From contig CM055097.1 of assembly GCA_029204225.1 (NCBI GenBank), forward strand, positions 66,656,941 to 66,720,940: 64,000 nt of DNA, in the 5' to 3' direction. A program made the translations under genes and the position numbers. This document shows positions 3,309 through 44,947 of the stretch, piece by piece. The notes beneath the pieces are model-generated. The model searched no databases. It was not told where the DNA came from and worked only from the letters and a program-made list of their open reading frames with translations. Position 1 is the stretch's first letter, and each line of letters opens with the position of its first letter. Source of the DNA: Diphasiastrum complanatum. Taxonomy: Eukaryota; Streptophyta; Lycopodiopsida; Lycopodiales; Lycopodiaceae.

Positions 3309-3420
3309 TTTGTTCTGCATTCAGATCCGTGTTAAAATAGCTATGCTTATTCTTCATTCTGTCTGATCTTTTTAGTTGTTCCTTCTGGTAATAGTCGACT
3401 AACATGTAGTCTTGTCTTTC

Positions 3421-3440: not shown

Positions 3441-3679
3441 AAGTATAAATATATAAAATCATCCAATAAAATGTGTTGCGAGGGCATGGCATCCTGCGTG
3501 TATAAGCCCATGGCCCAATGAGCACACAAGTGAAGTTGTAAATAAAATAATAGACTTGGGCCCTTTGTAATTAAAATAAAACTTGAGGCCCAAAGTCAAT
3601 TCTAGACTTAGAGTTTACTTTTTAGAGTTGGGTCCAATTTTGGACTCACATGAATCTTGTGATTTCCAAATTCAAATCT

Positions 3680-4320
3680 TCATAAGAACTCTCACAGAGC
3701 CCTCTGAAGTTCCATCTCAGTGAGACCAGGACACAGAGAAGCTTGCGAGAGTTAGTTTGATGTCTAAGTGCCTATGTGAGGGTTCCTAGTGAAAAAAAGA
3801 TAGAAAAGTACGAATGAACTCTCGCAGACAGCAAAGTTTTCAGTTTCAGTGGTCAAGAACTCTTGCAGAGGATTCTAAAGTTCCATCTCAGTGAGACCAG
3901 GACATAGAAGAGCTTGCGAGAGTTAGTTTGATTCCAGTGAGCAGAAAATTGGGGTTAAGTGCTAAAAAATCACTAAAAAGTGAAGATCCAGCAAATCCTT
4001 CCAGTAAGAACTCTCGCAGACACCCTCAATCGATCCAGAATGTCAATTTACATCAGTGATGAAGCCTGCGAGAGTTAGTTTTGAGATTTGGTGAAGATCA
4101 AACCAAAAAAGTGGTTTGGACCCTCGCAGATAGTGAAATTTTTACTTCTTGCAAGAGTTAACTCTCGTAGAGAATTCTATAGTGAGATCTGACCCAGATC
4201 CAGCTACTGTGAGTCTTGCAAGAGCTACTTCCAAAATATCAGAGACATATCAGATTTTTTATTTGCAAATCAGCTAAAGAACCCTCGCACAAGAAAACCC
4301 TCACAAACTAGATCAATGGA
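3680..4320. repeat. Array of AACTCTCGCAGA / TGCGAGAGTT motifs (left copy)
   Basis: At least ten close variants of AACTCTCGCAGA or its reverse complement TGCGAGAGTT lie in about 640 bases. They are near 3683, 3745, 3820, 3852, 3914, 4010, 4067, 4117, 4150-4175 and 4215, alternating in orientation. The stretch is non-coding and lies between the palindromic terminus at 3421 and a PBS-like site at 4483, so it looks like the internal or untranslated part of a non-autonomous LTR element. The same array is present inverted at about 45580-46210. Confidence 0.7.
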
Positions 4321-4482
4321 AAGATCCAGCTACTGTCAAAATCTCAGGTCAATCAGTGCAAGGAGTAAAAAGTTATCAAGGAAAAGGACTAAAATTCACT
4401 TCCGGTCTATCTACATTTCTATTTTTTATACTAGAAACAAGAAAGCCCACATCATGCTAGGTCCGCCCAGCTTGAACCATCA

Positions 4483-4497
4483 CCTGCTCTGATAACA
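4483..4497 (-). promoter_or_regulatory. PBS-like site (TGTTATCAGAGCAGG)
   Basis: On the minus strand this reads TGTTATCAGAGCAGG, close to the plant initiator-Met tRNA primer site TGGTATCAGAGC. It lies directly next to a TGTTGAAAAC terminus at 4498, which is the arrangement expected downstream of a minus-strand 5' LTR. Confidence 0.55.
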
Positions 4498-4935
4498 TGT
4501 TGAAAACCAAAACACATCGATAAATTTAAAACATTGAGAGAGTAGGGAGAGAGAACACACAATGCTAGTATCAAAGAATTGCACAATAATACAATGTGAC
4601 AAATGAGAGAGATGAAGTTGTTTAAAGACTTGTCTCTTCACATCTAGTCAATTGTTCTCCAATCTTCTTTCACAAAGGAAAGATTGGACCTCTTTAATTA
4701 GATAATCATTAAGTACCAGCAAGTACATTGTGATTGGTTGTATGGTGTGTACCACAATTGATGATGACGCAACTAGACATGAGACAAATGCTAAAATGGC
4801 ATATATTGATGTGGCATTCAAAAACTTTTGAGATACTTGATCTTTGTGATATCTTTTTGGAAACATTTGTTGTATTTCAAAAGAGTGCTTTGTGCATTGG
4901 AATAGGTTGGAAGAGAAGGATCAAGTCATTGCAAC
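4498..4935 (-). repeat. Putative LTR of a minus-strand element (left copy)
   Basis: In plus orientation the block starts TGTTGAAAAC and runs to CATTGCAACA at about 4935, where a plus-strand copia gag begins. The lower end is supported by the adjacent PBS; the upper end is only a TG...CA guess. No coding potential was seen beyond short chance frames. An inverted copy lies at about 44948-45385. Confidence 0.42.
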
Positions 4936-6448
4936 ATGGCTATATCAAGTAGATACATGTTAGAAGGCAATGATAGGCTTACCTAGTCAAGCAACTATTC
5001 ATTGTGGAAAGTGAGGATGGAATCACTTCTTGAGATGAATGATGCTTTGGATATTGTACAGGTTTGGAGGAGAGATCAGCAACACAACAAGATAAGTGAG
5101 GTATTTCAGGAGGACAAAAAGAGCTCTACACATGATAAAGATGAATGTTACCAATGAACTTCTCAAGGAAGTTGATGAGTGTACTTCATCAAGCGAGGCT
5201 TGGGAAGCTTTGAGAAGCTTTATGAATCCAAGTCTACATCTAGAATGTTGACTCTAAAAAGACAAATCTTTTAAAGTTTGCAAAAGAATGAAGAGAGTCC
5301 AAATATTTTTGTTTTGAAAGAGGAGGCTTTGAATGATGAGTTATCTTGCATTGATGTGAGCATTAAGGAAGGAGAGCTTGTTCAAGTTATTCTTAATGGT
5401 TTGTTGGATGCTCATGCTAACATTGTACAAAGTCTTTCCATTCAAAGAACTTTGCCAAGTTTTATGGATCTCAAAGAGATTTTGATCAATGAAGAATATA
5501 GGCTTCAAGCAAGAGGTGGATCTTCATCAACATCTCAAGTTGGAGAGGAGGCTATGTTCATCACGGGAAAAAGCAAAAGTGAGTGGTCTAAAGGACAAGA
5601 ACAAGGGGAGGCTTTTTCAAATGGAAAAAAGAAAGACAGGTCAAAGCTAAAGTGCTTCTATTGTGGCATCAAAGGACACTTTGCAAGTGAGTGCTACGAG
5701 AAGAAGTCTTCATGTATGCTTGCTAATGATGGAGATGTAGATCAATGGTGGATTGATAGTGGTGCAAGCTCACACATGACTTTTCACAAAGAGTACTTCA
5801 CTTTTTTGTTGTCATATGAAGATGACAAGAAGGTGATCTACACGGCCAATGATGGTGAGTGTGCAATCAAAGGGATTGGCACAATTCCTATTTCTCTCTC
5901 TACAAATAGGAATGTTCATTTGAAGGATGTTTTGTTCATACCTTTCATGACCAAAAATCTACTTAGTGTGAGTCAAGCGCTAAGTGATTGTTTCAAAGAT
6001 GAGTTTCATGGAGATGCTTGCATAATCAAAAGGAAGGATATCTTGATTGCAAAAGGTAAAAGATGAGGAAAATTGTTCAAACTAGATGCTTGTGTTATTG
6101 CTAACCAAGTTAGATTTGTGAGAAGTGAGCAAATACCTATTCAAGAGGTTTGGCATAAAAGGATGGGACACCTCAACTTCAAGTCATTGGAGGTAATGGC
6201 TAAGAAGCAAGTTGTGATTGGTCTTCCAAGATTCTTAAGTAGCATCAATCATGTTTGTGAGTCTTGTGCTTTGTCAAAGTCACATAGACTACCTTATGCT
6301 AGATACATCTAAATCTACAAAGCCTTTTCAAGTTGTACATTCGGATATTTGTGGAACTGTTACAATTAGCAATAGTGGAGCTAAGATGTATGTAACTTTC
6401 ATTGATGATTTTAGTAGGTTTTGTTGGATCTATTTACTAAAAACATGA
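4936..6448 (+). pseudogene. Ty1/copia F: gag, zinc knuckle, protease, start of integrase (left copy)
   Basis: Gag starts at ATG 4936 (RYMLEGNDRL, SNYSLWKVRMESLLEMNDAL) but has a stop at about 4984 and a frameshift near 5060. A long clean frame at 5278-6066 holds the gag C-terminal half (ELVQVILNGLLDAHANIVQS), one CCHC knuckle (CFYCGIKGHFASEC, about 5653-5694) and an intact protease site WIDSGASSHM (about 5749-5778). After a stop at 6064 come GAG-pre-integrase (WHKRMGHLNFKSLEVM) and the integrase zinc region and core start (VVHSDICGTVTISNSGAKMY). The frame is cut at LLKT, position 6448. Compared with the inverted copy at 43669-44947, this copy lacks 29 codons between the knuckle and the protease but keeps gag sequence that the other copy has lost. 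Confidence 0.9.
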
Positions 6449-7207
6449 TAACAAAAAAAAAGAGAAATGACTTGAAGACCCATTTTTTTTTAATTTATTA
6501 ATTTTTTTTTAAAGTATCCAAATTTAAAATGCTTCAAATAAATTTATTGTAATGGTAAAAAAATGTTGTATTTTGCAAGAAAATAATTTAAGCTACAAAA
6601 GTTTGGTCAATAGATTTCTATAAATAACTTAAAGTTAGCTTATATTAAATAATAATACTATTTAAAATAAAATCATTAGATACACAACCACTAGAATACC
6701 TAAAAAATATTTTTTGCTTACTAAAAACAAAAGTTATAGTTTTTTTTTTTGGAATTTTAAAAGTTTTTTTTAATTACAATTCTTGTATCGAAAAAAATAT
6801 TTTTAAAATTATGTTATTAGACATTAAATCAATACAAATACAATTACCTTACAATAATCGAGATTAAATTATTTGTGATAATATTTAAATCACCTTGAAG
6901 AAAATATAATTTTTTTTTCATTTCTTATAGTTTTTAACAATATTTTTTTTACAAAAAATATTATAAAAACACATCTAAAATTAAAATATTATAAACTTGA
7001 CAAATCATTACAAAATTACTTTTTGGTAATAATTATCAATGTTAAAATTTTTAAAATATTTCAAGTTTTAAATTTTAAATCGTTAAAAAATAAATTTAAA
7101 AATGTTAAATCAATAAAAAAGAATTCAAAACACAATACATCAAAAATAATAGACACAATTATTTTTTAAAACAAAAGATAATTTTTTATTTCCAAAAATC
7201 ATCGATG
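6449..7207. other. Very AT-rich spacer, no gene
   Basis: The stretch is poly-A and poly-T rich with no ORF. It is the 3' flank of the methyltransferase gene and is matched, inverted, at 42964-43668. Because the copia integrase stops at the same base in both copies, the junction here is older than the duplication. Confidence 0.6.
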
Positions 7208-9966
7208 TCATTTACATCTTTTTCTTTTGTTTTTTTCTTGAGTAGCCACTGTACTATCAAGTGACACCTCTTCTACAATTTTCTTGACTACAATTATTAC
7301 ATTGTAATCTTGAACTAGGACATCAGCAAATTCTCTTGTATCGCCTATTTTTCCACTAGCAAGAGACTGAAGTTCCTTGGACAAGAGAATTATTGTATCC
7401 TCGCTGTCCAAACTCTTTCCCACCTTAGATAATTCATCTGACAAAATTGAAAGAGATTTCATTCTCATTTTTATGAAATCAATTAAATTAGTATATAAAT
7501 CTACTGCAGCAACATGTCTACCTTTTTGAACAGCACATGCGCTCGTAGTGCCGCTATCGCTAAACAAATCTAAAACCCGATCAACTGGGTGAGAAAAAAT
7601 ATCAATTAAATGATTAATTAATTGTAGTGGCTTTTGGTATGGACAAGCCACGGAACTCGTCATTGGATTTTTTAATTTCTTTGTCACAGTTGGATACTAG
7701 AACAAGTTTCCAAAACCTGTCAGTCCGGAAGTGTTATAATACAGCATCGAGCGTTTGTCATCCAAAGAATAATAACCAATGGTTATGTATTCTATTTCAT
7801 CGCAAAGTCGAGCTCCTCCCGGTTCTTGACATTGGGCTTGACTTGACATGGAACATTACAAGTAAAATCAATTTAAAATTTTAATTAAAAAATAAAAAAT
7901 TTAAAATAAAATTATGGATTAAAATACGAATTGATAATTCAAGGAACTTAAAAACTTACCTCACAACATTCTCGATTCTCGCATTACAGAAAGTTAGTAG
8001 AGCTTTCTGTACTGATGCTGACTGCCAAGAAGAATGAAAAATACAACTTTTCAAATTGGAGAAGTTGTGACTTCAAGAAAGCCCTGCATAAAACTATGGA
8101 TTTCAGTGAATTTGAAAAGAGTATCATCATTTAATGATTTTTTCATCTGAAATCCATATGGTATATCGACGATGCAGAGTGTATAAGATTTTTTTCTTAA
8201 ATTTTTTGAAATTTCTCTACAATCGCCCTCCTCAACAGAGTAAAAACATGGCTGATCATCGACACTTTTGGGAAGGTAAGTCTCTAATGGATCCTCCTCC
8301 GCAATGGTCTCATCCTGTGCCAATCTCTCCTTGTCCCTTTTTTCTGCTTTTGTCTTCAGAATATGTCTCTTGAATTGCTTTGGAAGGACTTTGTTTTTTT
8401 TTTTTTTTTTTTGGGTCTTTGGGAGACTGAAAAGTAAAAAGCTATGCTTAGCATGGGAGACAAAAAATTTAAAATAGAATAGGAGACTTAACTTTTCAAA
8501 AAAAAAATTAAATAAAGAAAAAACTATGCTTAGCATAGGAGACATAGAATATAGAAAAGAAACAATTAATACGCACCTATGTTAAGCATGGGTGAAATAA
8601 ATACCATGTCTCCAAACAAAATAAAAAATGGACTCAGGGGTTCATTTTGGCTGTTCAAAGGATAAAGCCTCTGACACTCATCAAAATTTTGACAATTTAA
8701 CCCTGTCACAAGGGCTTCTTGAACTTTCATAAATAATTTGTGCCTGCATTTAAAAAATATAGTTGTTAAAAATCCAACCAAATTATGAAAATTATTTTAT
8801 AAAAAAAAAAAGTAACATGAAAAAGAATATGTAAATTATGATTATTACCTCTAAAATTCTTTTCCTATTTCTGTTAGGAAAAGTTGACCATCGGCAACTC
8901 TTGACAGGACACTTATTATTAGCTCTAAAGAGCTACTCTTTTGCATATTCTTTTGATATTCCCATTTCAGTAGGGATTGGCTTAAGAGTTCGAGTGCTCA
9001 CAACTTTTTTTTTTGGACTTTGAGGCACCCTGAGCAGGTTGGCCTTTTATTTGAAAAGTTTTGCACTTATCAAAAATTTTATCAACAAGGGCCGACACTT
9101 GAAATAAAAAATATATATTTAATTGATAAAGAATTTAACCAATATTAAAATTGAGTTCAAAATTTTAGTTTGATAAAAATAATTTAAAAAGATTATAACA
9201 TATATTATGACTAGAGCATTCCATGACGAGCATAGCCAAACAAATTACCTGGCCACTACAAAAAGCAAGCTGAAAAAAATTATCATATTTAGTAAGGCTC
9301 TGCGTAGGATTTTTCAAATCAAGAGACAAGCCTGTCTCTTGAGCACATAGTGCTTTAATCAAAATTTGCAACATCGTTGTATTCGTTGGAATCAACCAAA
9401 ACAACAAAGGGAGTAACTATGGCCTGTGTATGATCTTTAAATTTTAGTTTTAAATTATGTACATGTGTTTCATTAGGCTCTCCAACTTCCATTAGCCTGT
9501 TTCCTGTTATTGGGTCTACAGGTGGCCTATCACACTGATTTATGTCTAAAATTATAGCTGTTTATTTTATTTTTTTGGTTTATGAAAATCCTCTCTTTAC
9601 TTGGCAAGTTCGGAGCTGTCTTGTAATGGGCGGATGGATGCACCAGGTAGCGACAAAGATGGTTCAGTGACGGCTTTTTTGCTTTCAACAAAAGGGATGG
9701 ACTTATGGCATAGCCATGGTCTTTGGGCGTGACTTAGGTCTAGTGGACGAAGTCTTAGAAATATTATGAGATTTTTTTTTTTTTTGATGAGACATGGCTA
9801 CGATTTCATCCTCAACATTTTCAGAGGCCGGCTTTGTGACCTGAGCAGTGGTAGAAGCGGACTTGCGAGGTCCAATAGATACACCTTTTGAACTCTATAA
9901 TGAAAAGACCGGATCTTTTCCCTCAACAATAGCAGCTAAATCCATTTTTAAGCATTGCTTCATGCT
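7208..9966 (-). pseudogene. N6/N4 DNA methyltransferase-like gene with introns (left copy)
   Basis: Read on the minus strand, this is a multi-exon gene with a beta-class amino-methyltransferase domain. Motif IV comes first (IVDIPYGFQMKKSLNDD, a DIPY form of the usual DPPY, about 8130-8180). A KPN segment follows, then CDEIEYITIGYYS, then the PYQKPLQL helix and the SAM-binding motif I (VLDLFSDSGTT, about 7545-7575), ending KRKRCK*. The usual motif I glycine is Asp here. Plausible GT-AG introns include 9546-9600 and those that map to the four listed for the right copy. N-terminal exons are lysine/serine rich and unrecognised (CDRPPVDPITG). Frameshifts (for example between KPNV and PGGARL, shared with the right copy) and stops make it a pseudogene. 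A donated or captured gene is possible; the specific base methylated is unknown. Confidence 0.72.
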
Positions 9967-9999
9967 CTGGACAGAAACAAAAATCAAGTTTAAAATATA

Positions 10000-10524
10000 A
10001 TGACTAAAAGCCCGTCATCATCTGAAATTCCTCAAGCAAGTACTTTTCAAGAAATGACGTCTGTAACTCAGCTTGTATCAAATCTTTTGACCTCGTCCTC
10101 CTCTTCGGATACAGGCTCGACAAAACTAGAACATTGTTTTCTTGAACAAGTTGAATCATTGAGTGATGAGTCAAAAGCTTCAATTCACTCAGTGACTGAT
10201 TCTAGTAAATCAACAGATCCACGTAAGTCTGTTGATCCGCGACGTTTAAGCTTTTCTCATGTTCGTAGGAGACCTCCTCAAAGTGATGTTCGTCGTGTTA
10301 AATCTAGAAGGGCTATATTCATTGAAAACTTAGAGCCTCCTGAGGGTCCAAAACATCTTGGGGTTGGAGTCAAAATTCCTGGTTATGAAATTCCAACACC
10401 TTCTCAATCAGTTCAAGCACCTACCAGTATCACAAGTTCAATTTATAGATTAGACTCCAAACAAAAAGAAAAATACAAGAGAGACTTGAGATCATCACTT
10501 GATTTAACGAATCGTCAAAAATAG
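10000..10524 (+). CDS. Orphan Ser/Arg-rich protein, 174 aa, unknown function
   Basis: This is an uninterrupted 174-codon frame with protein-like composition. It has a Ser/Thr-rich N-terminal half (SNLLTSSSSSDTGSTK, DSSKSTDPRKSVDPRRLSF), a basic middle (HVRRRPPQSDVRRVKSRR), then a more ordered, Pro/Gly-rich stretch (NLEPPEGPKHLGVGVKIPGY) and a Lys/Arg-rich end. After the TAG at 10522 the same frame stays open to about 10667 (LITKYEIRNVRNIVCSSSCC), so the stop may be a disabling mutation and the 3' end may have been cut off by the LTR inserted at 10728. It starts 33 bases from the last visible exon of the methyltransferase, divergently. It is not part of the inverted repeat. I do not recognise the family, and no signal peptide or membrane segment is visible. 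Confidence 0.45.
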   Translation: MTKSPSSSEIPQASTFQEMTSVTQLVSNLLTSSSSSDTGSTKLEHCFLEQVESLSDESKASIHSVTDSSKSTDPRKSVDPRRLSFSHVRRRPPQSDVRRVKSRRAIFIENLEPPEGPKHLGVGVKIPGYEIPTPSQSVQAPTSITSSIYRLDSKQKEKYKRDLRSSLDLTNRQK

Positions 10525-10727
10525 TTGATTACAAAATATGAGATTCGAAATGTACGGAATATTGTTTGCTCCTCATCCTGCTGTTTGCAAAAGTTGAGTA
10601 TCAAAAAAATTGAAGAATTAAGATCAAACTTCTTTTTTACGAAGTAAGGATGAGATAAATTACTATTTGTGTGCAACAATGAGGCCGGACAAAAATTCAT
10701 TTTGGTATTTTTTAAATGCTTTGGAGG

Positions 10728-11418
10728 TGTGAAAAATTGCCTACATTGGCAAATCTAGCCATGTAGAATATTGTACATTTTGTCCATATTGTTTGTTGGT
10801 TACTTGAATGGCCAAAGTGCCACTTGTACATACACACCTAAAGTAGGTTACCACAAGTCAAGAGGAGTGGTTGTGTCCATTTGGTAGTGATTCCTACTTT
10901 GTAGGATCTAGACCATGATTTATGATGAGATTTGTACCTACCATGCACCTACCAAGCATGACTCTTGGATCTAGGCTAGGGTTTTCACATTAGGGCAAGA
11001 AAGTGGAGTCTACTTTCTTATTACATACTGGATTTTCACCTAACTTAGCAAAGCAAGTGTGTTTTACTATGTCTTCCCATTCTCCATAGTGAGAAGATAG
11101 AAACTTTTTGGAGCCTCAAGGAGAAACTCAAGTTTCCTCTCATTGTATGGTGATTACTCTTGATTTCCAATGAAACCCAGCTTTGGCACTTTGTAAACAC
11201 TGTCTACAGGCCGTACTACAGCCTTATTTCCACACGTGTGGAGTTGGATTATACTAATTGATCAATGCTTTGATTGTCTCTACTTGTTTCCTATCAAGCT
11301 GCTAAACTAGATCTTGTTTTCTGATAACTAGTTTCTGATAGATTGTTTAACAAGCATACAATCACCTTGTGGATCATTCAAAGATCCATTTATGGTCCTT
11401 AGTACTGTACTTTTCACA
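10728..11418 (+). mobile_element. Copia LTR, 691 bp
   Basis: The block opens TGTGAAAAATTG and closes CTTTTCACA, giving matching TGTGAAAA / TTTTCACA terminal inverted repeats, and is followed without a gap by a PBS. Both termini and the PBS are clear, so this is a well-defined 5' LTR. The early 12-mer CTACATTGGCAA recurs at about 18720 and 50690. Confidence 0.82.
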
Positions 11419-11430
11419 TGGTATCAGAGC
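11419..11430 (+). promoter_or_regulatory. Primer-binding site TGGTATCAGAGC
   Basis: An exact match to the plant copia PBS complementary to initiator methionine tRNA. It directly abuts the LTR end at 11418. Confidence 0.9.
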
Positions 11431-12047
11431 CAAGTACAAGTCCATTGATCTGTGTCTAAATCTAATCCAGTTTTAGCAAGTTTTGGTGCAAAAAGCTAGT
11501 ATTGGAAGGGCGAGCAGGTATCCAGGTTTTGGTGAGGGGATTTGATCCCAAACTTTTTTAGTATCAAAATCTGTACTGTTCACAGGTGTGGGCATCTCTG
11601 AACCAACATTTAATAACCCATATTCATTGGATCATAGAAAATTCATCTGGTGTCAGTTTGATGTAATTTTTGGTGCAAATCCTAGGATAAGCTACCAAGA
11701 TCACTTGCCATTGATTAATTTTGAATTTGTTTCATGAAAACTAGTTAATCTAGGCTGATTTTAGGACTTCTTAAAGTGGAAACCAGGTCTTGAAAGTACA
11801 AAGTGAATGAGAGAGATAGAGTCAGTTTCTGTCCAAGAATAGCCAAGATTGGCAAGATTTGCTTGAGAGTAGTTTTCATCTCATCTTATCTTCATTCCAG
11901 CTTTGTGAGGGAGTGATAGAACTGTGATTACAATTCCATCTGTTGGATTAGAAGTCAACATTTGAGTGAAACACTGCAATTTGTAAACCTTTGTGAGTTT
12001 CAGGTCCAAACAAATCTATATCTTGTGTGTAGAATCTTGCTAGTAAG
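11431..12047 (+). other. Untranslated leader of the LTR element
   Basis: About 620 non-coding bases lie between the PBS and a polyprotein that starts in the middle of integrase. The normal gag and protease regions are missing; the leader joins family-A coding sequence at 12062, the exact base where homology to the right-hand copy begins. Confidence 0.6.
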
Positions 12048-13766
12048 ATGGGATCAGTGGGAGGCATCTTTGTGGGATATGGTGAGAATAGCAAAGCTTA
12101 TAGAGTCTTCAATCCCATCACTAGCAAGGTGATAGTGAGGAGGGATGTTATTTTTTATGAAGGACATGCTTGTGATCTGGATGATAATGCTACTAATCAT
12201 CTTGATGCCAAGGATCATGCTAGGATGGAGGAGGAGCTTCCAAGTGAAGAAGAACTTGAGGATCCACCTCAAGATGCAAGAGCTCCAAGAACTCCAAGAA
12301 CTCCAAGAAGGTCTACAAGGGCAAGATCCGAGCCATTGAGGCTCACCTATGATGGTCAAGGTGATCAAAGGGAAGGCTCATCATCTTTCACATCTTACAC
12401 CTTTATTACTTCAATGTTAGATGAGCCAACATGCTATGAAGATGCTTGTAAGTCTACAAGTTGGATGGATGCTATCCAAGTAGAGTATGATGCTCTTATT
12501 GAGAATCATACTTGGGATCTTGTGGATCTTTCTCAAGGGAAGAAACCTCTTGATTGCAAGTGGGTATTTAGATTGAAGTATAATCGAGATGGATCAATAA
12601 GCAAGCATAAAGCTAGGCTTGTTTCCAAAGGTTTTTTTCAAACCAAAGGCATTGATTATGATGAGACTTTTGCTCCTGTGGCTAAGCTTGTTACTATCAC
12701 GTTGATCATTAGTCTTGCTACAACCTTCAATTGGGAGCTATTTCAACTTGACTTTACAAATGCATTCCTCAATGGTTATTTGGAGGAAGAGATCTACATG
12801 AGGCAACTCGAGGGCCTCATCAAGGCAAAGCATGAAGGAAATGTGTGTTTTTTGAAGAAGAGCCTTTATGGGCTCAAGCAAGCACCTAGAGCATGGTACT
12901 CTAGGCTGAACTCTTTTCTCATTTCCATCAATTTTGTAATGAGTGCCTATGATCCATCATTGTATATAAGTTATCATGATGGCATGATCATTATTCTTGT
13001 TTTGTATGTAGATGACATTATCTTGAGTGGTAATGATCTAGATGGAATTAGAGATGTAAACATTGCTTTAGCAAAAGAGTTTAAGATGGTAGATCTTGGC
13101 CTATTAGGCTTCATTCTTGGAATAGAAGTTATTAGAGGATGTGATTTTAGCTTCATTTGTCAATCTAAATATGCTACATCCATCCTCGATAGATTTGGAA
13201 TGAAGAATTGTAAAGGCATTGAGACACCAATGGAGCAACATGTAAAAGCATCTATTGGTTGTGATGAAGCATCCTTTAAGGACATCACATTATATAGAAG
13301 GCTTATTGGCTCTTTGATCTATTTAACTATAACTAGACCTGGTCTTAGTTATAGTGTTGGAAAGTTAAGCCAATTCATGCAAAGTCCTCTAGTTTCACAT
13401 TGGAAGATGGCCAAAAGAGTTCTTAGATACATTTCATCCACTAAGAATTTTGGCATTTTGTATAGAGGAACTAATCTTGGCTTAAGAGCCTATAGTGACT
13501 CTGATTTTGCAGGTGACAAAGTGGATAGAAGATCGACAAGTGCCTTTGCCACCTTTCTATGTGATGGAGTAGTATCATGGCTTTCCAAAAAGCAAGATAC
13601 CATCATTTCAAATATGTATTTTTTTGGCTTTTTTCAAAAGAGATTTATTGAAAAAATCCATGATTTTGGCCTCAAACTAGGAACATTAAAAAACACCAAA
13701 AAAGATTACTCTTTTTCAGGTCAAAATCCCAAAACAAATGTCATTGTGTTTAAAGAGCAAAGTTGA
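12048..13766 (+). pseudogene. Ty1/copia A: integrase C-terminus, full RT, part of RNase H (572-codon open frame)
   Basis: A single open frame of 572 codons. The ATG at 12048 comes from the leader (MGSVG) and is fused in frame to the integrase tail (GIFVGYGENSKAYRVFNPIT). An acidic and basic linker follows, then a complete-looking RT: CKWVFRLKYNRDGSISKHKA, QLDFTNAFLNGYLEEEIYM, KKSLYGLKQAPRAWYSRLNS, the catalytic YVDDIILSG (about 13000-13026), and the thumb (LGIEVI, YRRLIGSLIYLTITRPGLSY). RNase H starts (YSDSDFAGDKVDRRSTSAF) and is cut at SKKQ, about 13600. The last 45 or so codons are junk from the junction with the next fragment. Gag, protease and the integrase core are deleted, so it is not autonomous, but the RT frame itself carries no visible lesion. 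Confidence 0.85.
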
Positions 13767-30660: not shown

Positions 30661-32846
30661 AAGCGCTCAAAGAACAAGTAAAAACTGCTCAAGAAAAAGG
30701 TAATTGACAAATACTAAAATTTGTTCTTTTTTTTAAGCTCTCATTTTAAATTTCTTTTATGCTTTCAATTTACTAAATCAATTTTGTTTGTGTACTTTTT
30801 TTAGTGGCCATTACAAAGTAACTTGAATCCGTAGAGAGCAACAAACAACAAAAAGACAAGCTTGTAAAGCACAAAAAAATGTCTTTGGATTTTTCTCAAA
30901 AGTATCTGGTCTCATAATCAATGGAATGGATCTAGTTTGTTGTCATTTTGTAAGGGTGCCAACGAATTGAAACGAAACAGATTTTATTTAAGTTCATTTG
31001 GTAGAAGCTCTCATATTCAATGACACTTTGCAGTCTAAAGTGTTTTTTTAATTGTCTCAATGTTCAAATTGATCCAAACTTGACCATTACCAGAATTCAT
31101 ACAATAATAGCTGAATTTGGTAATAGTCTTTCTAAGATTCTCAATACTGCTAGGAAAAAAAAAATCAAACAATGATGAAATATGCATCGATGTTGGTTGC
31201 TTTGAAAACTTTCAAAAAAATCAAAACCGTATTTATATTGGTGGATCACACTCATGATTAAATTGACCAAATGTTTAGTTGCTTTTCTAAAAAGTTAAGA
31301 TGCAAAAAAGATTTTTTTTCACCAATGTTATAGAATATTATCGAGGAGTCTTACACCCCTACATTAAATGTGTTGATACTATGACACATTTGATTTTAGA
31401 GATTATATCAAAATGTTCGAAAAACATTGCATTGCATCAATAAATGATATTAGTTTTTCAACATCAATTTAAAATTTCAAATAATGTTAGTGGCATCACA
31501 TTATTGTGGGAAAAACAATTTTCGAACTTTGTAGCATACGTACCTTTCAAAAGCTCAAGGAAAACATCGTTCAGTTGATCCATTTATGACATTGAACTTT
31601 TTGAAAACAAACATTCAATCCAGATACCAATCTTTTGACGGGTTTGATCAACGTTTTGGTGGATAGATATTTTGAAAAGTAAAAAGTAAGTGTGCTTCAC
31701 TTGGGAGATGCAAACTTGTTTGAAGAGTTTCAACGATCATTTAGATATTTAATTCCAACACAATTAATTCCTCTGCTATTTCACAATCTCTTCTACGAAA
31801 CGAAAAACGTGAAATTTATTTGGAATCTAGAAAAAATCACCAAATTGTAAATGTCTCCAAGGCTAAATGGTCTGGTAACCCCAATGAAATAAAGGTTGGG
31901 GGACTCATTGCACTTTTAGCTTCATAAAATAGCAAAAATCATTCATTTCGGATCACTAAACTGATTAGCTTCATTTAGAGCGACAACACGTTGGCAAAAA
32001 TTGCATGTGTGCATGCATACCACTTCAACAAAGGCTTTTTTGGAAAGGTATGAGTTAGAAATGTTGCAATTAGATCCAAAAGACAAAATGAAGCATTCAA
32101 CAAAAAATCAACAAAGAGTAAATAATGTAGATATTCAAGATGTGGATGTGGTTGCATTTAATTTTGATCTTGACAATGACCAACCATATTTTTACGAAAG
32201 TCAACAATATCCATTCTACAAGAACGTCTTAAATTAAGTGCACAACTATCATCATCAACTTGACATCAACGTAGCAAAACCACAATACACAATTTTTTTG
32301 TCAACATTGGATTCTAACTCAGATGAGAATTTGCTAATAGACTCTGATGAGAAAAATGAGTTGTCAACTTCATCAATTGAAAAAGAAAGTCTTAATAATA
32401 TTTAGAGGTTTGAGTTGAGAGGAGTTAGTGAGAATTCCTTTGAGTTTGAATTGTTAAAAAAATAATATAAAAAATATTTTCAAAATTTGTGGATTTAACG
32501 TAAATAGCAACAAATGTAATTTGTAATTTATTTTCATGAAAGTCAATTGGGAGTATTCAAACACCATAAATATTTGTGTATTTTGTTCATGTAGATAATT
32601 TTATTTTTTAAATTTGATTAAAAAATCTAATTTTTTTTGGTGTATTCATTTTTTTTGGTTAATTGCATTTATTTATTTTTTTGTGATTTTTGAGAATGTC
32701 TTCATGGAAAAACATGTTTTTGGAAAAAGAAAAATTGAAAAATTGAAAACATGTTATTAATTTTTTGGAATTTTGAACATTTCAAAAGATTTCACGTTAC
32801 TTCAAGAAGATACTTGATATGGGCAATAAAGACACATATATAAAGG
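30661..32846. other. Degenerate AT-rich stretch, no assignable gene
   Basis: Short protein-like runs appear on the plus strand (for example about 32041-32236: ERYELEMLQLDPKDKMKHST, NVDIQDVDVVAFNFDLDNDQ, then YPFYKNVLN), but frames are broken and no family is recognised. It may be an old transposase or host gene relic. Confidence 0.35.
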
Positions 32847-37176: not shown

Positions 37177-37755
37177 CCTCTCATTCAAAATGACATTTGT
37201 GCCAATGAATCACCTTATTAGTAGTAGGAATGTAAACCTTGTAGACTTAACTCACCTCACTATATCCAACAAATATACCTTTCCTTGAAGATGGATCTTT
37301 CTTGTCCTACCATCAAAAGTTATATTGACATAGCAAGTACATCCAAAAGTTTTAAGAAAGTTGACACTCGACCTCCTCTTGAATAGCATCTCAGAAGGTG
37401 TCCTTCCCTCCAACATAGCACTCAGCCACCTATTGCATATAAAGTTAGCACTAAACAAAGCTTGATCCCAGAATGGTTTTGGAAGATTAGCAGCTAATCT
37501 AATGGCTTTGGCACTTTCACATAAAGTCCTATTCTTCATCTCGTCCATTCCATTTTGTTGTGGTGTCCTTGGAGTTGTGTACTCCCTCTTGATCCCATGC
37601 TCATCACAAAAAGCCTTAAACTTGGTAGACATGTGCTCTCCACCATTGTCACTCCTCAAACAGTTGATCCTTGTAAAAAATTGGTTCTCCCTTGCATTTT
37701 TTAGCTTCACCAAGACATCATACACTTCAACTTTGCTCTTTAAACACGATGACAT
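37177..37755 (-). pseudogene. Ty1/copia B integrase core (right, inverted copy)
   Basis: The minus-strand frame 37252-37755 carries the same integrase segment as 13738-14241: LRSDNGGEHMSTKFKAFCDE, TPQQNGMDEMKNRTLCESAK, FWDQALFSANFICNRWLSAM. It ends at the gypsy LTR junction; the RT that follows in the left copy is absent. Confidence 0.88.
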
Positions 37756-37882
37756 TTGTTTTGGGACTTCGACCTGAAAAAGAGTAATCTTTTTTGGTGT
37801 TTTTTAATGTTCCTAGTTTTAGGCCAAAATCATGGATTTCTTCAATAAATCTCTTTTAAAAAAAGCCAAAAAAATGCATATT

Positions 37883-40511
37883 TTAAATGATAATATCTTG
37901 CTTTTTGGAAAGCCATGATACTACTTTATCACATAGAAAGGTGGCAAAGGCACTTGTTGATCTTCTATCCACTTTGTCACCTGCAAAATCTGAGTCACTA
38001 TAGACTCTTAAGCCAAGATTAGTTCCTCTATACAAAATGCCAAAATTCTTAGTGGATGAAATGTATCTAAGAACTCTTTTGGCCATCTTCCAATGTGAAA
38101 CTAGAGGACTTTGCATGAATTGGCTTAACTTTCCAACACTATAACTAAGATCAGGTCTAGTTATAGTTAAATAGATCAAAGAGCCAATAAGCCTTCTATA
38201 TAATGTGATGTCCTCAAAGGATGCTTCATCACAACCAATAGATACTTTTACATGTTGCTCCATTGGTGTCTCAATGCCTTTACAATTCCTCATTCCAAAT
38301 CTATCTAGGATGGATGTAGCATATTTAGATTGAAAAATGAAGCTAAAATCACATCCTCTAATAACCTCTATTCCAAGAATGAAGCTCAATAGGCCGAGAT
38401 CTACCATCTTAAACTCTTTTGCTAAAGCAATTTTTACATCTCTAATTCCACCTAGATCATTACCACTCAAGACCATCATAGGTGAGCCTCAATGGCTCGG
38501 ATCTTGCCCTGGTAGATCTTCTTGGAGTTCTTGGAGTTCTTGGAGCTCTTGCATCTTGAGGTGGATCCTCAAGTTCTTCTTCACTTGGAAGCTCCTCCTC
38601 CATCCTAGCATGATCCTTGGCATCAAGATGATTAGTAGCATTATCATCCAAATCACAAGCATGTCCTTCATAAAAAATAACATCCCTACTCACTATCACC
38701 TTGCTAGTGATGGGATTGAAGACTCTATAAGCTTTGCTATTCTCACCATATCCCACAAAGATGCCTTTGATGGATGTTGCACCATCCTTTCTTCTCTTAT
38801 CCAAGGATTGGTGTACATAGCAAGTGGATCCAAAAACTTTGAGATTCTTGAGATTGGGCTTCTCTCCAAATAGAGCTTCAAATGGTGTGATTCCTCCAAT
38901 GGCTTGGTTTGGCAATCTATTGCACAAATAGTTAGCACAAGTTATTGCTTCACCCCAAAATGGTTTGGATAGCGAAGCATCTAGCCTTAAGGCCTTAGCA
39001 CACTCACAAAGAGATCTATTTTTTCTCTCACTCACTCCATTTTGTTGAGGGGCGTATGGACATGACAACCCTCTCTTTATGCCATTAGAACTACAAAAGT
39101 CAATCAACTTATTGGAGATATATTCACCTCCATTATCACTCCTTAATACCTTAATCTTGGTACTAAGTTGATTTTCTACCAAAGTCTTGAACTTTACAAA
39201 AGAATCAAACACCATTGATTTGCTAGACAAGAGGTACATCCAACAAAGTCTAGAATAGTCATCAATGAAGATTACATAGTACTTGGCACCACCATTAGAC
39301 TCATGTGAAAAACTATGAACATCCGAATGGATGAGTTCAAGAGGAGAGTTTGATCTTGACTCTAGATCTTGAGAAGGATAGTTTGTGAGCCTTTGAGAGA
39401 CTGCATGCTTCACATCTCTTCCCACACTTTGACAAATGCTTGGGGAGTCCAACTGCAAGCTCCTTTGCAACCATAGATTCCATGGCTTTGTAGTTGGGGT
39501 GGCCCAACCTTTTATGCCACAGTTCCACCTTTGATAACTCCATCTTTGCCAAGTTAACACTCTCCACTACAACATTAGCATCAAGCTTAAACAATCTACC
39601 TTGCTTAAAGCCTTTGGCTATACATTCACCATTTCTAAGGATGGAACAAACTCCATGCTTATCCATTTACTGGCCAACACTAAGCAAATTCTTGGTTAAC
39701 TTAGGAACATAAAGAACATTATCAAGATTCATCCTTTTGGATGATCCCACATACAAGGGAATTGTTCCTATTTCACTTATCTTACATTCTTGACTACTTG
39801 CAGTATAGATTGATCTATGTAAATCATTGTAAGAAAGTAAACTGGAGAATATGTCCTTTTGTAATGTCATGTGGAAACTTGCCCCACTATCAATCCACCA
39901 AGAATCATTGGTGTTGCTCTTGGATGATGGTGGTTTGTTGGAAACCATCAAGGATGACTCTTCATCCTCCTCCTCCTCCTGATGTGCAATGTTGCTTTGT
40001 TTGCTCTCTTGTGCCTTCTTCTTCTTGAGACATTCTGATGCAAAATGTCCTTTCTTTCCACAGAAAAAACATTTGTGCTTGGACTTGTCTTTGATCTTGC
40101 CCTTTGAGCTTGAAGCCTCATCCTCCTCCTTGGTCTCCTTGAAGTGCTTCTTCTTGCCATTGGTCTTCTTCTTGCTTTTGAATGAGAAATTAGCTTTCTC
40201 ATCACCATCCTGCAGAGAAATAGCATTCATTCTTGCATTGGTATGCATCATCCTACACTCTTCAGTTACTAACACATTGTGTAGCTTTTCTATAGTAGGC
40301 AAAGTGTCTTGGATTGCAAAGCTTTGGACCAAATTTGTAAAGGCACTCCCTAGACCATTGAGGACAATCTGAACAAGCTCACTATCTTGAATCTTCTCTC
40401 CAATGGAAGCTAACTCCCTATTGAGAGACTTGATTCTTAGCACATAATCTTGTGCACTCTCATCACTCCTCTTTGTAGAATTTGATTCCTAAGCATGAGA
40501 ATCCTCGAAGT
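37883..40511 (-). pseudogene. Ty1/copia A: gag, knuckle, protease, integrase, RT C-terminus (right copy)
   Basis: Minus strand. Gag (40443-39667): LNRELASIGEKIQDSELVQI, knuckle CFFCGKKGHFASEC (about 40029-40070), protease site WWIDSGASFHM (about 39880-39912). Pre-integrase: LWHKRLGHPNYKAMESM. Integrase: LIHSDVHSFSHESNGGAKYY, LRSDNGGEYISNKLIDFCSS, APQQNGVSERKNRSLCECAK and the tail GIFVGYGENSKAYRVFNP. At about 38475 the reading jumps from LTYDG to LSGNDLGG: about 670 bases of RT, with YVDD, are deleted relative to 12350-13023. The RT thumb and RNase H start follow to 37883. Gag begins abruptly at 40511, at the joint with the methyltransferase gene. Confidence 0.9.
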
Positions 40512-41738
40512 GGTGCATCCAACCGTCCATTACAAGACAGTTCCGAACTTGTCAAATTAAGAGAGGATTTTTATAAAACAAAAAAAAATAAAATAAACAA
40601 CTTTAATTTTAGACATAAATCAGTGTGATAGGCCACCTGTAGACCCAATAACAGGAGACAAGCTAATGGAAGTTAGAGAGCCTAATGAAACACATGTATA
40701 TAATTTAAAACTAAAATTTAAAGATCATACACAAGCCATAGTTACTCCATTTGTTGTTTTGGTTGATCTCAACGAATACAACGTTGTTGCAAATTTTGAT
40801 TAACACACTATGTGCTCAAGAGACAGGCCTGTCTCTTGATTCGAAAAATCCTACGCAGAGCCTTACTAAATACGATAATTTTTTTCAGCTTGCTTTTCGT
40901 ACTAACCAGGTAATTTGTTTGGCTATGCTCGTCATGGAATGCTCTGGTCATAATATATGTTATAATCTTTTTAAATTGTGTTTATCAAACTAAAATTTTG
41001 AACTCAATTTTAATATTGGTTAGATTCTTTATCAATTAATTTTTTTTTTTTATTTCAGGTGTGGGCCCTTGTTGATAAAATTTTTGATAAGTGCAAAACT
41101 TTTCAAATAAAAGACCAACCTGCTCAGGGTGCCTCAAAGTCCAAAAAAAAAGTTGTGAGCACTCAAACTCTGAAGCCAATCCGTACTGAAATGGGAATAT
41201 CAGAAGAATATGCAAAAGAGTAGCCCTTTAGAGCTAATAATAAGTGTCTTGTCAAGAGTTGCCGATGGTCAATTTTTTCTAACAGAAATAAGAAAAGAAT
41301 TTCAGAGGTAATAATCATAATTTAAATATTTTTTTTCATGTTACCTTTTTTTATAAAATGATTTTCATAATTTGGTTGGATTTCTAACAATTATATTTTT
41401 TAAATGCAGGCACAAATTATTTATGAAAGTTCAAGAAGCCCTTGTGACAAGGTTAAATTGTCAAGATTTCGATAAGTGCCAGAGGCTTTATCCTCTGAAG
41501 AGCCAAAATGAAGTCCTGAGTCCATTTTTTATTTTGTTTGGAGACATGGTATTTATTTCACCCATGCTTAACATAGGTGCGTATTAATTATTTCTTTTCT
41601 ATATTCTATGTCTCCTATGCTAAGCATAGTTTTTTCTTTATTTAATTTTTTTTTTTGAAAAGTTAAGTCTCCTATTCTATTTTATATTTTTTGTCTCCCA
41701 TGCTAAGCATAACTTTTTCCTTTTCAGTCTCCCAAAGA

Positions 41739-41783
<45 letters not shown>

Positions 41784-42963
41784 AAAGTCCTTTCAGAACA
41801 ATTCAAGAGACATATTCTGAAGACAAAAGCAGAAAAAAGGGACAAGGAGAGATTGACACAAAATGAGACCATTGCGGAGGAGGATCCATTAGAGACTTAC
41901 CTTCTCAAAAGTGTCGATGATCAACCATGTTTTTACTCTGTTGAGGAGGGCGATTGTAGAGAAATTTCAAAAAATTTAAGAAAACAATCTTATACACTCT
42001 GCATCGTCGATATACCATATGGATTTCAGATGAAAAAATCATTAAATGATGATACTCCTTTCAAATTCACTGAAATCCATAGTTTTATACAGGGCTTTCT
42101 TGAAATCACAACTTCTCCAATTTGGAGAGTTGTATTTTTCATTCTTCTTGACAGTCATAGAAAGCTCTACTAATTTTCTATAATGCGAGAATTGAGAATG
42201 TTGTGAGGTAAGTTCTTAAGTTCCTGAATTATCAATTCATATTTTAATTCATAATTTTATTTGAAATTTTTTATTTTAAAATTAAAATTTCAAATTGATT
42301 TTACTTGTAATGTTCCATGTCAAGTTAAGCCCAATGTCAGAAACCGGGAGGAGCTCGACTTTGCGATGAAATAGAATACATAACCATTGGTTATTATTCT
42401 TTGGATGACAAACGCTCGATGCTGTATTATAACACTTCCGGACTGACAAGTTTTGGAGACTTGTTCCAATATCCAACTGTGACAAAGAAATTAAAAAATC
42501 CAATGACGGGTTTCGTGGCTTGTCCATATCAAAAACCACTACAATTAATTAATCATTTAATTGATATTTTCTCTCACCCAGTTGATCGGGTTTTAGATTT
42601 GTTTAGCGGTAGCGGCACTACGAGCGCATGTGCTGTTCAAAAAGGTAGACATGTTGCTGCAGTAGATTTAGATACTAATTTAATTGATTTCATAAAAATG
42701 AGAATGAAATCTCTTTCAATTTTGTCAGATGAATTATCTGAGGTGGGAAAGAGTTTGGACAACGAGGATACAATAATTCTCTTGTGACTTCAGTCTCTTG
42801 CTAGTGGAAAAGTAGGTGACACATGAGAATTTGTTGATGTCCTAGTTCAAGATTACAATGTAATAATTGTAGTCGAGAAAATTGTAGAAGAGGTGCCACT
42901 TGATAGTACAGTGGCTACTCAAAAAAAAACAAAAGAAAAGGATGTAAATGACATCGATGATTT
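40512..42963 (+). pseudogene. N6/N4 DNA methyltransferase-like gene with introns (right copy)
   Basis: Inverted copy of 7208-9645. Candidate GT-AG introns are 40910-41058, 41308-41409, 41549-41727 and one from 42208 to about 42320. An exon after 41727 codes a poly-Lys run (43 A residues at 41740-41782), then EAEKRD-like charged sequence and motif IV (IVDIPYGFQMKKSLNDD, about 42009-42060). The last exon has EIEYITIGYYSLDDKRSMLY, VACPYQKPLQLINHLIDIF, an intact motif I (VLDLFSGSGTT, about 42586-42620) and the acidic VDLDTNLIDF strand. A TGA at about 42785 ends it early (EDTIILL), so the C-terminal tail kept in the left copy is lost. The first exon is missing because of the joint with copia A at 40511. 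In beta-class enzymes motif IV precedes motif I as seen here. Confidence 0.75.
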
Positions 42964-43668
42964 TTGGAAATAAAAAATTATCTTTTGTTTTAAAAAATAA
43001 TTGTGTTTATATTTTTTGATGTATTGTGTTTTGAATTCTTTTTTATTGATTTAACATTTTTAAATTTATTTTCTAACGATTTAAAATTAAAAACTTGAAA
43101 TATTTTAAAAATTTTAACATTGATAATTATTACCAAAAATTAATTTTGTAATAAATTATCAAGTTTACAATATTTGAATTTTAGATGTGTTTTTATAATA
43201 TTGTAAAAAAAATATTGTTAAAAATTATAAAAAATGAAAAAAAAATTATATTTTTTTCAAGGTGATTTAAATAATATCACAAATAATTTAATCTCGATTA
43301 TTGTAAGGTAATTGTATTTGTATTTATTTAATGTCTAATAACATAATTTTAAAAATATTTTTTTCGATACAAGAATTGTAATTCAGAAAACTTTTAAAAT
43401 TCCAAAAAAAAAAACTATAACTTTTGTTTCTAGTAAGCAAAAAATATTTTTTAGATATTTTAGTAGTTGTGTATCTAATGATTTTAAGTTATTTATAGAA
43501 ATCTATTGACCAAACTTTTGTACCTTAAATTATTTTCTTGCAAAATACAACATTTTTTTACCATTACAATATATTTATTTGAAGCATTTTAAATTTGGAT
43601 ACTTTAAAAAAAAATTAATAAATTAAAAAAAAAATGGGTCTTCAAGTCATTTCTCTTTTTTTTGGTTA
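42964..43668. other. Very AT-rich spacer, no gene (right copy)
   Basis: Inverted match of 6449-7207; poly-A and poly-T rich, without coding sequence. Confidence 0.6.
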
Positions 43669-44947
43669 TCATGTTTTTAGTAAATAGATCCAACAAAATC
43701 TACTAAAATCATCAATGAAAGTTACATACATCTTAGCTCTACTATTGCTAATTGTAATAGTTCCACGAATATCCGAATGTACAACTTGAAAAGGCTTTGT
43801 AGATTTAGATGTAGATCTAGCATAAGGTAGTCTATGTGACTTTGACAAAGCACAAGACTCACAAACATGATTGATGTTACTTAAGAATCTTGGAAGACCA
43901 ATCACAACTTGCTTCTTAGCCATTACCTCCAATGACTTGAAGTTGAGGTGTCCCATCCTTTTATGCCAAACCTCTTGAATAGGTATTTGCTCACTTTCCA
44001 CAAATCTAACTTGGTTAGCAATAACACAAGCATCTAGTTTGAACAATTTCCCTCATCTTTTACCTTTTGTAATCAAGATATCCTTCATTTTGATTATGCA
44101 AGCATCTCCATGAAACTCATCTTTGAAACAATCACTTAACGCTTGACTCACACTAAGTAAATTTTTGGTAATGGAAGGTATGAACAAAACATCCTTCAAA
44201 TGAACATTCCTATTTGTAGAGAGAGAAATAGGAATTGTGCCAATCCCTTTGATTGCACACTCACCATCATTGGCCATGTAGATCACCTTCTTGTCATCTT
44301 CATATGCCAACAAAGAAGTGAAGTACTCTTTGTGAAAAGTCATGTGTGAGCTTGCACCACTATCAATCCACCATCGATCTAGATCTCCATCATTAGCAAG
44401 CATACATGAAGACATCACAAAAGCATCATCATTTGAGTTTTGGACATCCAAACCATCATCCTCATGAGTAAGATTACCTTGTTTGTCACCTTGATCTTTC
44501 TTCTTCTCGTAGCACTCACTTGCAAAGTGTCCTTTGATGCCACAATAGAAGCACTTTAGCTTTGACCTGTCTTTCTTTTTTCCATTCTCTTCATTCTTTT
44601 GCAAACTTTGAAAGATTTGTCTTTTTAGAGTCAACATTCTAGATGTAGACTTGGATTCATAAAGCTTCTCAAAGCTTCCCAAGCCTCGCTTGATGAAGTA
44701 CACTCACCAACTTCCTTGAGAAGTTCATTGGTAACATTCATCTTTATCATATGTAAAGCTCTTTTTGTCCTCTTGACATACCTCACTTATCTTGTTGTGT
44801 TGTTGGTCTCTCCTCCAAACCTACAACAATATCCAAAGCATCATTCATCTCAAGAAGTGATTCCATCCTCACTTTCCACACTGAATAGTTGCTTGACTAG
44901 TTAAGCCTATCATTGCCTTCTAACATATATCTACTTGATATTGCCAT
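43669..44947 (-). pseudogene. Ty1/copia F: gag, protease, integrase start (right copy)
   Basis: Minus strand from the gag ATG at about 44947 (SSRYMLEGNDRLN, then stops). The frame 44703-44053 carries CFYCGIKGHFASEC, an insert absent from the left copy (KDQGDKQGNLTHEDDGLDVQ) and the intact protease site WIDSGASSHM. The middle of gag is deleted: LQKNEE is joined to NGKKKDRSK. A single frame 44046-43669 then runs without a stop through WHKRMGHLNFKSLEVM and VVHSDIRGTITISNSRAKMY to LLKT, the same end as at 6448. Confidence 0.9.

What the first reader, a model, noticed from the sequence alone, without database searches (positions are those of the whole stretch)
7208..9966. Bacterial-style N6/N4 DNA methyltransferase domain in an intron-containing plant gene
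Motif IV (DIPYG), the KPN segment, PYQKPLQL and motif I (DLFSxSGTT) occur in beta-class order in a gene with several GT-AG introns. Such amino-methyltransferases are standard in prokaryotes and known from only a few eukaryotic lineages, including 4mC enzymes reported from liverwort. Introns argue for long residence in a eukaryotic genome rather than contamination. The N-terminal half matches no domain I know.
Basis: partly seen in the sequence, partly recalled or inferred. Interest (0 to 1): 0.78.

Follow-up and report, generated by a model that had tools for sequence, protein, structure and literature searches.

The report
DNA methylase carried by plant transposon
The bacterial-style DNA methylase gene is real, but it is a decayed copy of a gene carried by a jumping DNA element that is repeated throughout this large, presumably plant, genome, so these elements may once have chemically marked DNA themselves.

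Summary
A beta-class N6/N4 DNA methyltransferase gene with introns lies on the minus strand at about 9963-7186 (PF01555, E=1.1e-9). It is not a single host gene. An inverted second copy lies at 40.5-43.0 kb (E=1.2e-13), and both copies are decayed. Other copies show the source: a DNA transposon with a divergent DUF7869 (PF25273) gene, presumably its transposase, short ends and 4-bp target duplications. In the window it sits inside a copia element; a relative of that copia without the insert was found. Pairwise dN/dS falls from 0.77 (recent pairs) to 0.20 (old pairs), as if the methylase was maintained while the family spread. ParB-like plus N4/N6-methylase genes were recently reported in algal transposons (PMC12477816). 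This looks like a land-plant version; my searches showed no earlier report. Target base, function and host lineage are untested.

The parts
6442..13750 (.). Copy A of the methylase-bearing DNA transposon (remnant), inserted in copia element no. 1 and itself interrupted by copia no. 2
   Evidence: Left end shared with other genome copies (matches of L100, L103, L104 start at 6442, L112 at 6440); right end shared with L116, L117, L120; empty copia relative in L111
6438..6441 (+). Target site duplication TAAA, left
   Evidence: Sequence; L111 relative without insert reads ACTAAAGAGC
13751..13754 (+). Target site duplication TAAA, right
   Evidence: Sequence
7186..9963 (-). N6/N4 methyltransferase gene with N-terminal (ParB-like?) domain, copy A, decayed; six exons in the model
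   Evidence: PF01555 E=1.1e-9; phrog_67 E=1.2e-17 on the read-through; exon and lesion coordinates
7186..7839 (-). Exon 6 (start uncertain): motif X (PYQKPLQL at 7642), motif I (DLFSDSGTT at 7570), C-terminus ending DDFWK-stop; TAG at 7699
7960..8426 (-). Exon 5: motif IV DIPYG at 8167
8577..8743 (-). Exon 4
8849..9097 (-). Exon 3; in-frame TAG at 8935 is shared with copy B and five fetched genome copies (model or subfamily lesion)
9249..9534 (-). Exon 2 of the N-terminal domain; a block present in other copies is deleted here
9601..9963 (-). Exon 1 (Ser/Lys-rich), TAG at 9897 and a frameshift
9994..10727 (+). N-terminal part of the divergent DUF7869 gene, cut off by copia no. 2
   Evidence: Its relatives run into DUF7869 genes in L107, L115, L117, L121 and others
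10728..11418 (+). 5' LTR of copia no. 2 (TGTGAAAA...TTTTCACA) inserted in the DUF7869 gene; primer-binding site 11419-11430
13605..13750 (+). Right end remnant of the transposon
   Evidence: 85-87% identical to L116, L117, L120 ends
37743..43675 (.). Copy B: the same transposon remnant in an inverted duplicate of the nest
40503..42970 (+). Methyltransferase gene, copy B (truncated 5'; DIPYG at 42009, DLFSGSGTT at 42596 intact; two stops late in exon 6)
   Evidence: PF01555 E=1.2e-13
30974..32444 (+). Another, more diverged DUF7869 gene remnant in the window; no methylase recognised beside it
   Evidence: tblastn

Best explanation
It is a decayed copy of an accessory gene of a eukaryotic DNA transposon. 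Shown: the element (8794 bp between target duplications in the copy on C4) has shared ends, makes 4-bp target duplications, and carries two divergently transcribed genes: a DUF7869 gene and an intron-containing beta-class N6/N4 DNA methyltransferase with an N-terminal domain. Supported: the methylase was under purifying selection while the family spread, and the window copies have drifted freely since an inverted duplication. Inferred: the DUF7869 protein is the transposase that moves the element by cut and paste; the N-terminal domain is ParB-like and brings the methylase to the element's own DNA; the methylase adds N6-methyladenine or N4-methylcytosine there. The likeliest benefit is to the element, either blocking host silencing or tuning when its ends are cut. 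The window copies make no active enzyme.
For: PF01555 in both window copies. 1605 candidates, 150 of 150 scored over cut-off, on 51 contigs including each of C1-C24. DUF7869 in neighbouring frames: E=8.3e-27, 2.6e-19, 1.3e-16, 1.5e-16. Of 14 methylase-partner pairs within 15 kb among 150 x 150 places, 12 are divergent with 5' sides facing and the other 2 come from one tandem array; sliding one list gave 0, 0, 0, 1, 0 pairs. Three of the 12 look like repeats of others on small contigs, so about 9 are independent. Ends and 4-bp duplications TAAA (with empty relative L111) and GGAA. dN/dS by age class: dS<0.15, 0.77 (41 pairs); 0.15-0.4, 0.47; 0.4-0.8, 0.23; 0.8-3, 0.20, from 22 non-redundant copies. 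Window A against B: exons 81/1752, introns 26/525 changes, Fisher p=0.73, codon positions about even. Motif I FSGSGTT intact in 22 of 29 distinct places, DIPYG in 11 of 18 (rows, repeats of one place merged by hand; some places are near-identical to each other).
Against: No complete intact two-gene copy was demonstrated: each of the six copies read with both genes shows an in-frame stop somewhere in the aligned parts. Of the 20 methylase stretches fetched, only 5 show the partner gene within the 10 kb; one of the others (L104) was extended by 3.2 kb on that side and still showed none. First-look candidates are more numerous for DUF7869 (2953) than for PF01555 (1605), so many DUF7869 elements may lack the methylase, as the second one in the window seems to. 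ParB likeness is weak: no Pfam or PHROG hit, two hits of E about 1 by tblastn in phages, hhalign P=0.36 in a first run with two misframed rows, P=0.019 and probability 2.4% in the cleaned run (0 of 100 column shuffles as high). A first alignment test of the inverted ends was not significant (right end one base out of register); an 11-bp comparison gave 9 of 11 for copy B and 8 of 11 for copy A (random pairs: 0.0003 and 0.0026). Motif IV is DIPYG, not the canonical (D/N/S)PP(Y/F/W). Target base, binding and any effect on silencing are untested. dN/dS pairs are not independent.
Confidence: 0.82

Rival explanations
1. A host (plant) N6/N4 methylase gene, like the 4mC enzyme reported from Marchantia, that was duplicated by chance with surrounding repeats.
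For: Introns, beta-class order; bacterial-type 4mC enzymes are reported from a liverwort and from bdelloid rotifers (passages in PMC8885841 and PMC8566409).
Against: 150 of 150 scored matches over cut-off on 51 contigs, element ends and target duplications, and divergent pairing with a DUF7869 gene.
Confidence: 0.04
2. A passenger: the element once picked up a methylase gene that does nothing for it (pack-type capture).
For: The copies read are broken; transposons do carry host fragments; ParB domain not securely shown; many DUF7869 elements may do without it.
Against: dN/dS of 0.20 between old lineages (125 pairs) and intact motif I in 22 of 29 places need long selection on the protein.
Confidence: 0.09
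3. The enzyme belongs to the element and is kept by selection, but acts on RNA, protein or host DNA rather than on the element's DNA (compatible with the identity part of the best explanation).
For: Specificity cannot be read from PF01555; DIPYG differs from canonical motif IV.
Against: Best matches are DNA methylases (PRK11524 and CcrM models, both below their cut-offs; RsrI, CcrM, MboIIA structures); the reported algal counterparts are interpreted as DNA methylases (PMC12477816).
Confidence: 0.12
4. Recent bacterial or phage contamination, or a recently integrated virus-like element.
For: The only database matches available here are bacterial and phage genes.
Against: Only about 21-26% identity over the domain to phage enzymes (up to 43% over short stretches), introns, chromosomal repeats in the same assembly, and nothing beyond the generic domain in viral contigs. 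No viral family passed its cut-off among the frames scanned with Pfam, but that was not a search for one.
Confidence: 0.02

Closest known systems
Sola1-1_Ec32 accessory gene of the brown alga Ectocarpus (PMC12477816; passages read)
   Same: DNA transposon; accessory gene on the strand opposite to the transposase; N4/N6 DNA methyltransferase domain together with a ParB-like domain
   Different: There 21.5 kb, Sola-1, 1104-aa product, brown alga; here about 8.8 kb, DUF7869 gene, 4-bp target duplication, several introns, presumed land plant, 150 scored matches; ParB weak here; selection on the methylase examined here
[quoted passage not shown] 2011; Petroll et al. 2025: seen only as references 50 and 51 in PMC12477816, not read)
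   Same: Called similar proteins by PMC12477816
   Different: Could not be compared; the second is not held, the first was not looked up
Bdelloid rotifer N4CMT (PMC8885841, passages)
   Same: Permuted (beta) PF01555 enzyme in a eukaryote, with introns
   Different: Host gene with SPPY motif and C-terminal chromodomain, linked to transposon silencing; here DIPYG, N-terminal domain, and the transposon itself owns the gene
Marchantia MpDN4MT1a/b (seen only through passages in PMC8885841 and PMC8566409)
   Same: Bacterial-type aminomethylase in a plant
   Different: Sperm-specific host genes without extra domains acting genome-wide, as those papers put it; sequences not available here
Phage ParB-methylase fusions, e.g. 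Vibrio phage 1.213.O AUR95847.1
   Same: Possible same domain order, ParB then N6/N4 methylase
   Different: 30% identity over part of the methylase (H25); ParB similarity weak by profile comparison

Membership tests
N6_N4_Mtase (PF01555), beta-class aminomethyltransferase | Profile score above curated cut-off | tested here: met
   39 and 52 bits against 26.7
N6_N4_Mtase (PF01555), beta-class aminomethyltransferase | Motif IV before X and I (permuted order) | tested here: met
   DIPYG 8167, PYQKP 7642, motif I 7570 on the minus strand; aligned with phage enzymes
N6_N4_Mtase (PF01555), beta-class aminomethyltransferase | Canonical (D/N/S)PP(Y/F/W) in motif IV (motif definition recalled) | tested here: not met
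   DIPYG in 11 of 18 places, both window copies included, none with PP; three of five phage relatives aligned there have DLPYG
N6_N4_Mtase (PF01555), beta-class aminomethyltransferase | Methylates adenine N6 or cytosine N4 in DNA | not testable with these tools
   No activity or modification data
DNA (class II) transposon | Defined ends shared by copies and target site duplication | tested here: met
   Ends in several copies; TAAA with empty relative; GGAA in the C4 copy. Only two duplications were read on both sides
DNA (class II) transposon | Terminal inverted repeats | tested here: inconclusive
   About 10 bp, ACAYGATGAC-like, at both ends in several copies; 9/11, random pairs 0.0003; a longer alignment was not significant
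DNA (class II) transposon | Encodes a transposase | tested here: inconclusive
   DUF7869 gene in the same element; that DUF7869 is a transposase domain is inferred, PF25273 is named 'unknown function'; one 85-residue DUF7869 piece had no PDB match
Sola superfamily | Sola-type transposase | not tested
   No Sola sequence or model was compared; that Sola2 makes 4-bp duplications is recalled only
ParB-methylase accessory proteins of algal transposons | ParB-like domain N-terminal to the methylase | tested here: inconclusive
   hhalign P=0.019, probability 2.4%, 0 of 100 column shuffles as high; no Pfam hit
ParB-methylase accessory proteins of algal transposons | Gene on the strand opposite to the transposase in the same element | tested here: met
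   12 of 14 close pairs divergent; six copies with both genes
Marchantia DN4MT / bdelloid N4CMT host genes | Orthology | not tested
   I had no sequences of these

The most novel reading that the evidence does not exclude
A land-plant genome was long colonised by transposons that bring their own bacterial-type DNA methylation (4mC or 6mA), targeted by an N-terminal DNA-binding domain to their own copies, and selection kept this because it counters host silencing or licenses transposition: a transposon-owned epigenetic mark, separate from the host's 5mC.
Probability: 0.35. Interest if true: 0.82.

Novelty: new variant of a known kind. Interest (0 to 1): 0.62.

Why it matters
Reports of 4mC and 6mA in plants are disputed (recalled). 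A high-copy transposon family that encodes an apparently maintained N4/N6 DNA methylase gives a concrete, testable source for such marks in one genome and says where to look: on the element itself. It extends a class reported from brown, green and red algae to what is presumably a land plant, on a different transposase, and adds evidence that the methylase was useful to the element. It also warns annotators that 'DNA methylase N-4/N-6' genes in such genomes can be transposon genes and not host epigenetic enzymes.

Tried and rejected
Bacterial or phage origin by close match: tblastn in phages gave 537 records and in plasmids at least 5000 (capped), none covering 80% of the query and all under 60% identity. 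I did not build a tree: at about 25% identity over 220 residues I judged that it would not place the enzyme.

Helitron and antisense passenger of an LTR element were considered for the insertion and dropped once copies with shared ends, 4-bp duplications and an empty copia site were found. I first took the exon 3 TAG, shared by A and B, as proof of death before duplication; one search shows it also in L112, L098, L099, L105 and L102, so I no longer count it as a lesion of the window copies. The block missing from exon 2 in both, private stops and neutral drift carry that claim.

The plant identity of the genome was not settled: the NAC-family test (PF02365) did not complete.

Full report
CHECK. 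On the minus strand of 9963-7186 lies a multi-exon gene whose last exon matches PF01555 (N6_N4_Mtase) with E=1.1e-9. DIPYG (8167), KPN (7839), PYQKPLQL (7642) and DLFSDSGTT (7570) follow in beta-class order. Closest solved structures include RsrI, CcrM and MboIIA. On a read-through, phrog_67 'DNA methyltransferase' matches residues 57-287 with E=1.2e-17, which includes motif IV. The N-terminal half has no Pfam or PHROG match.

A SECOND COPY. Window 5703-9645 is repeated in inverted orientation at 40511-44416 with 93.5% identity, as part of a longer inverted duplicate (1717-14326 against 37166-46993, in pieces). Copy B scores higher (E=1.2e-13) and keeps DLFSGSGTT where A has DLFSDSGTT. Since the duplication the copies have drifted freely: exons differ at 81 of 1752 sites and introns at 26 of 525 (Fisher p=0.73), with no clear codon-position bias in the three exon stretches counted (9, 9 and 12 changes). 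Both lack an exon 2 block that other genome copies have. A has stops at 9897 and 7699; B has two late stops in exon 6.

WHERE IT SITS. The gene lies antisense inside an insertion that splits a copia integrase. The insertion (6442-13750) is flanked by TAAA on both sides, and a copia relative elsewhere in the genome without the insert reads ACTAAAGAGC at the same point (L111). A second copia is nested in it, its 5' LTR at 10728-11418 with a primer-binding site at 11419.

THE GENOME. The genome search answered three times. The assembly has 1,744,706,496 bases in 5176 contigs. Some small contigs look like second copies of the same place (C4185 and C4661 give the same score, and C12:14353959 the same again), so distinct loci are fewer than 150, while the cap hides the rest.

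THE PARTNER GENE. The plus-strand ORF at 9994-10727 continues, in other copies, into a gene with DUF7869 (PF25273): L115 E=8.3e-27, L107 2.6e-19, L121 1.3e-16, L117 1.5e-16. The genome has 2953 first-look DUF7869 candidates, 150 scored, so many DUF7869 elements may lack the methylase. I searched the genome with the N-terminal part of that protein (2195 candidates, 150 scored) and compared the two lists of 150 places: 14 pairs lie within 15 kb, 12 of them divergent with 5' sides facing; the other two belong to one tandem array on C6. Sliding one list by 50-200 kb left 0, 0, 0, 1 and 0 pairs. Among the 12, C4185 and C4661 resemble the C12 pair and C3616 resembles a C20 pair, so about 9 are independent. 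Of 20 methylase stretches of 10 kb fetched, all 20 matched the methylase query and 5 also showed the partner gene. In the C4 copy the two genes' hits lie 4.8 kb apart, about the flank fetched, so several stretches could not have reached it; but L104, extended by 3.2 kb on that side, still showed none. Reading on from the five gave six copies with both genes.

ENDS. Left ends begin mostly (A)ACATGRTGACC, with variants in L104 and L110, and right ends, reversed, AACACRATGACATTTG (five ends: window A and B, L116, L117, L120). A copy on C4 with both ends measures 8794 bp between GGAA duplications. The target duplication is 4 bp in both cases read. A first statistical test of longer inverted repeats was not significant (the right end was one base out of register); 9 of 11 bases match in B and 8 of 11 in A (random pairs 0.0003 and 0.0026). 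I call the ends short and imperfect.

SELECTION. I took 27 exon 6 matches of at least 85 codons (shorter ones such as L088, L113 and L114 dropped), removed near-identical ones to leave 22 (window A and B included; 6 of the 22 contain a stop), and computed Nei-Gojobori distances for 231 pairs with finite dS. Ratio of summed dN to summed dS: 0.77 for dS<0.15 (41 pairs), 0.47 for 0.15-0.4 (42), 0.23 for 0.4-0.8 (22), 0.20 for 0.8-3 (125); one pair lies outside these bins. That is what a selected source gene shedding dead copies gives. Pairs share history, so this is a pattern and not a test. The partner-gene parts gave 0.43-0.53 on 6-9 copies. Motif I is intact FSGSGTT in 22 of 29 distinct places; motif IV is DIPYG in 11 of 18, with NIPYG in 3, YIPYE in 2, and DISYG and NILYG in one each (rows, repeated places merged by hand; the script misread three rows, L088, L089 and L113, which one search shows as FSGSGTT).

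N-TERMINAL DOMAIN. Better copies contain a block reading roughly FFVLGGIHxLQxxKQL...SAIxFxGLTxEEAKLLAWDHNIDQDYR. By eye this resembles ParB, and ParB-methylase fusions exist in phages. Profile comparison is weak: P=0.36 with two misframed rows, P=0.019 and probability 2.4% after cleaning, above all 100 column-shuffled controls (max 18.9 against 19.8). No Pfam hit and nothing convincing in PHROGs or phage genomes. I treat it as likely, not shown.

HOW IT MOST LIKELY WORKS. Shown: a mobile element with shared ends and short duplications that carries both genes. Supported: long selection on the methylase. Inferred: the DUF7869 protein is the transposase; the N-terminal domain binds DNA; the methylase adds 6mA or 4mC to element DNA; the mark helps the element against host silencing or in timing its excision. 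The window copies are relics with no active product.

WHAT IS KNOWN. PMC12477816 (passages and two of five parts of the reference list read; [quoted passage not shown] The sources it cites there (Iyer et al. 2011; Petroll et al. 2025) I did not read (for the second). Searches whose listings showed no report in land plants or with DUF7869; only open-licence PMC papers are covered and most listed papers were not opened. Sola2 is a recognised subgroup (PMC4455052, passages); whether this element is Sola2 was not tested.

LIMITS. Kinship to liverwort and rotifer enzymes was not tested. The confidence of 0.82 stands mainly on what the element is; its DNA-marking role alone I would put between the 0.35 of the novel case and one half.

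Noticed in passing
window 30974-32444 (+): A second, more diverged DUF7869 gene remnant in the window; no methylase was recognised near it.
   Followed up: partly
window 1717-14326 and 37166-46993; 34873-37176 and 61700-64000; 23921-24456 and 51793-52324: Large inverted duplications of nested repeats, about 93-99% identical in the matched pieces.
   Followed up: partly
G000 C22:12333634-12347135: Four methylase matches at about 4.4-4.6 kb spacing: a tandem array of a diverged version, with no partner gene seen in the 10 kb read (L114).
   Followed up: no
G000 C6:50518000-50538000: Successive methylase-DUF7869 units in the same orientation, a head-to-tail array of the element.
   Followed up: partly
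window 27201-28484 (-): 427-residue frame matching Lipase_3 (PF01764, E=1.1e-6); possibly an ordinary host gene, not examined further.
   Followed up: no
exon 3, window 8935 and 41221; L112, L098, L099, L105, L102: An in-frame TAG shared by many copies at the same codon: a missed splice site or a stop that spread with a subfamily.
   Followed up: partly
L098 and L099 (C12:38121300 and C12:38056500): Copies in which exon 1 of the methylase is inverted relative to the rest; the two loci mirror each other in layout.
   Followed up: no
window 3684-3932 and 45959-46207: 78-bp repeats spaced 171 bp apart, in both halves of the inverted duplication.
   Followed up: no
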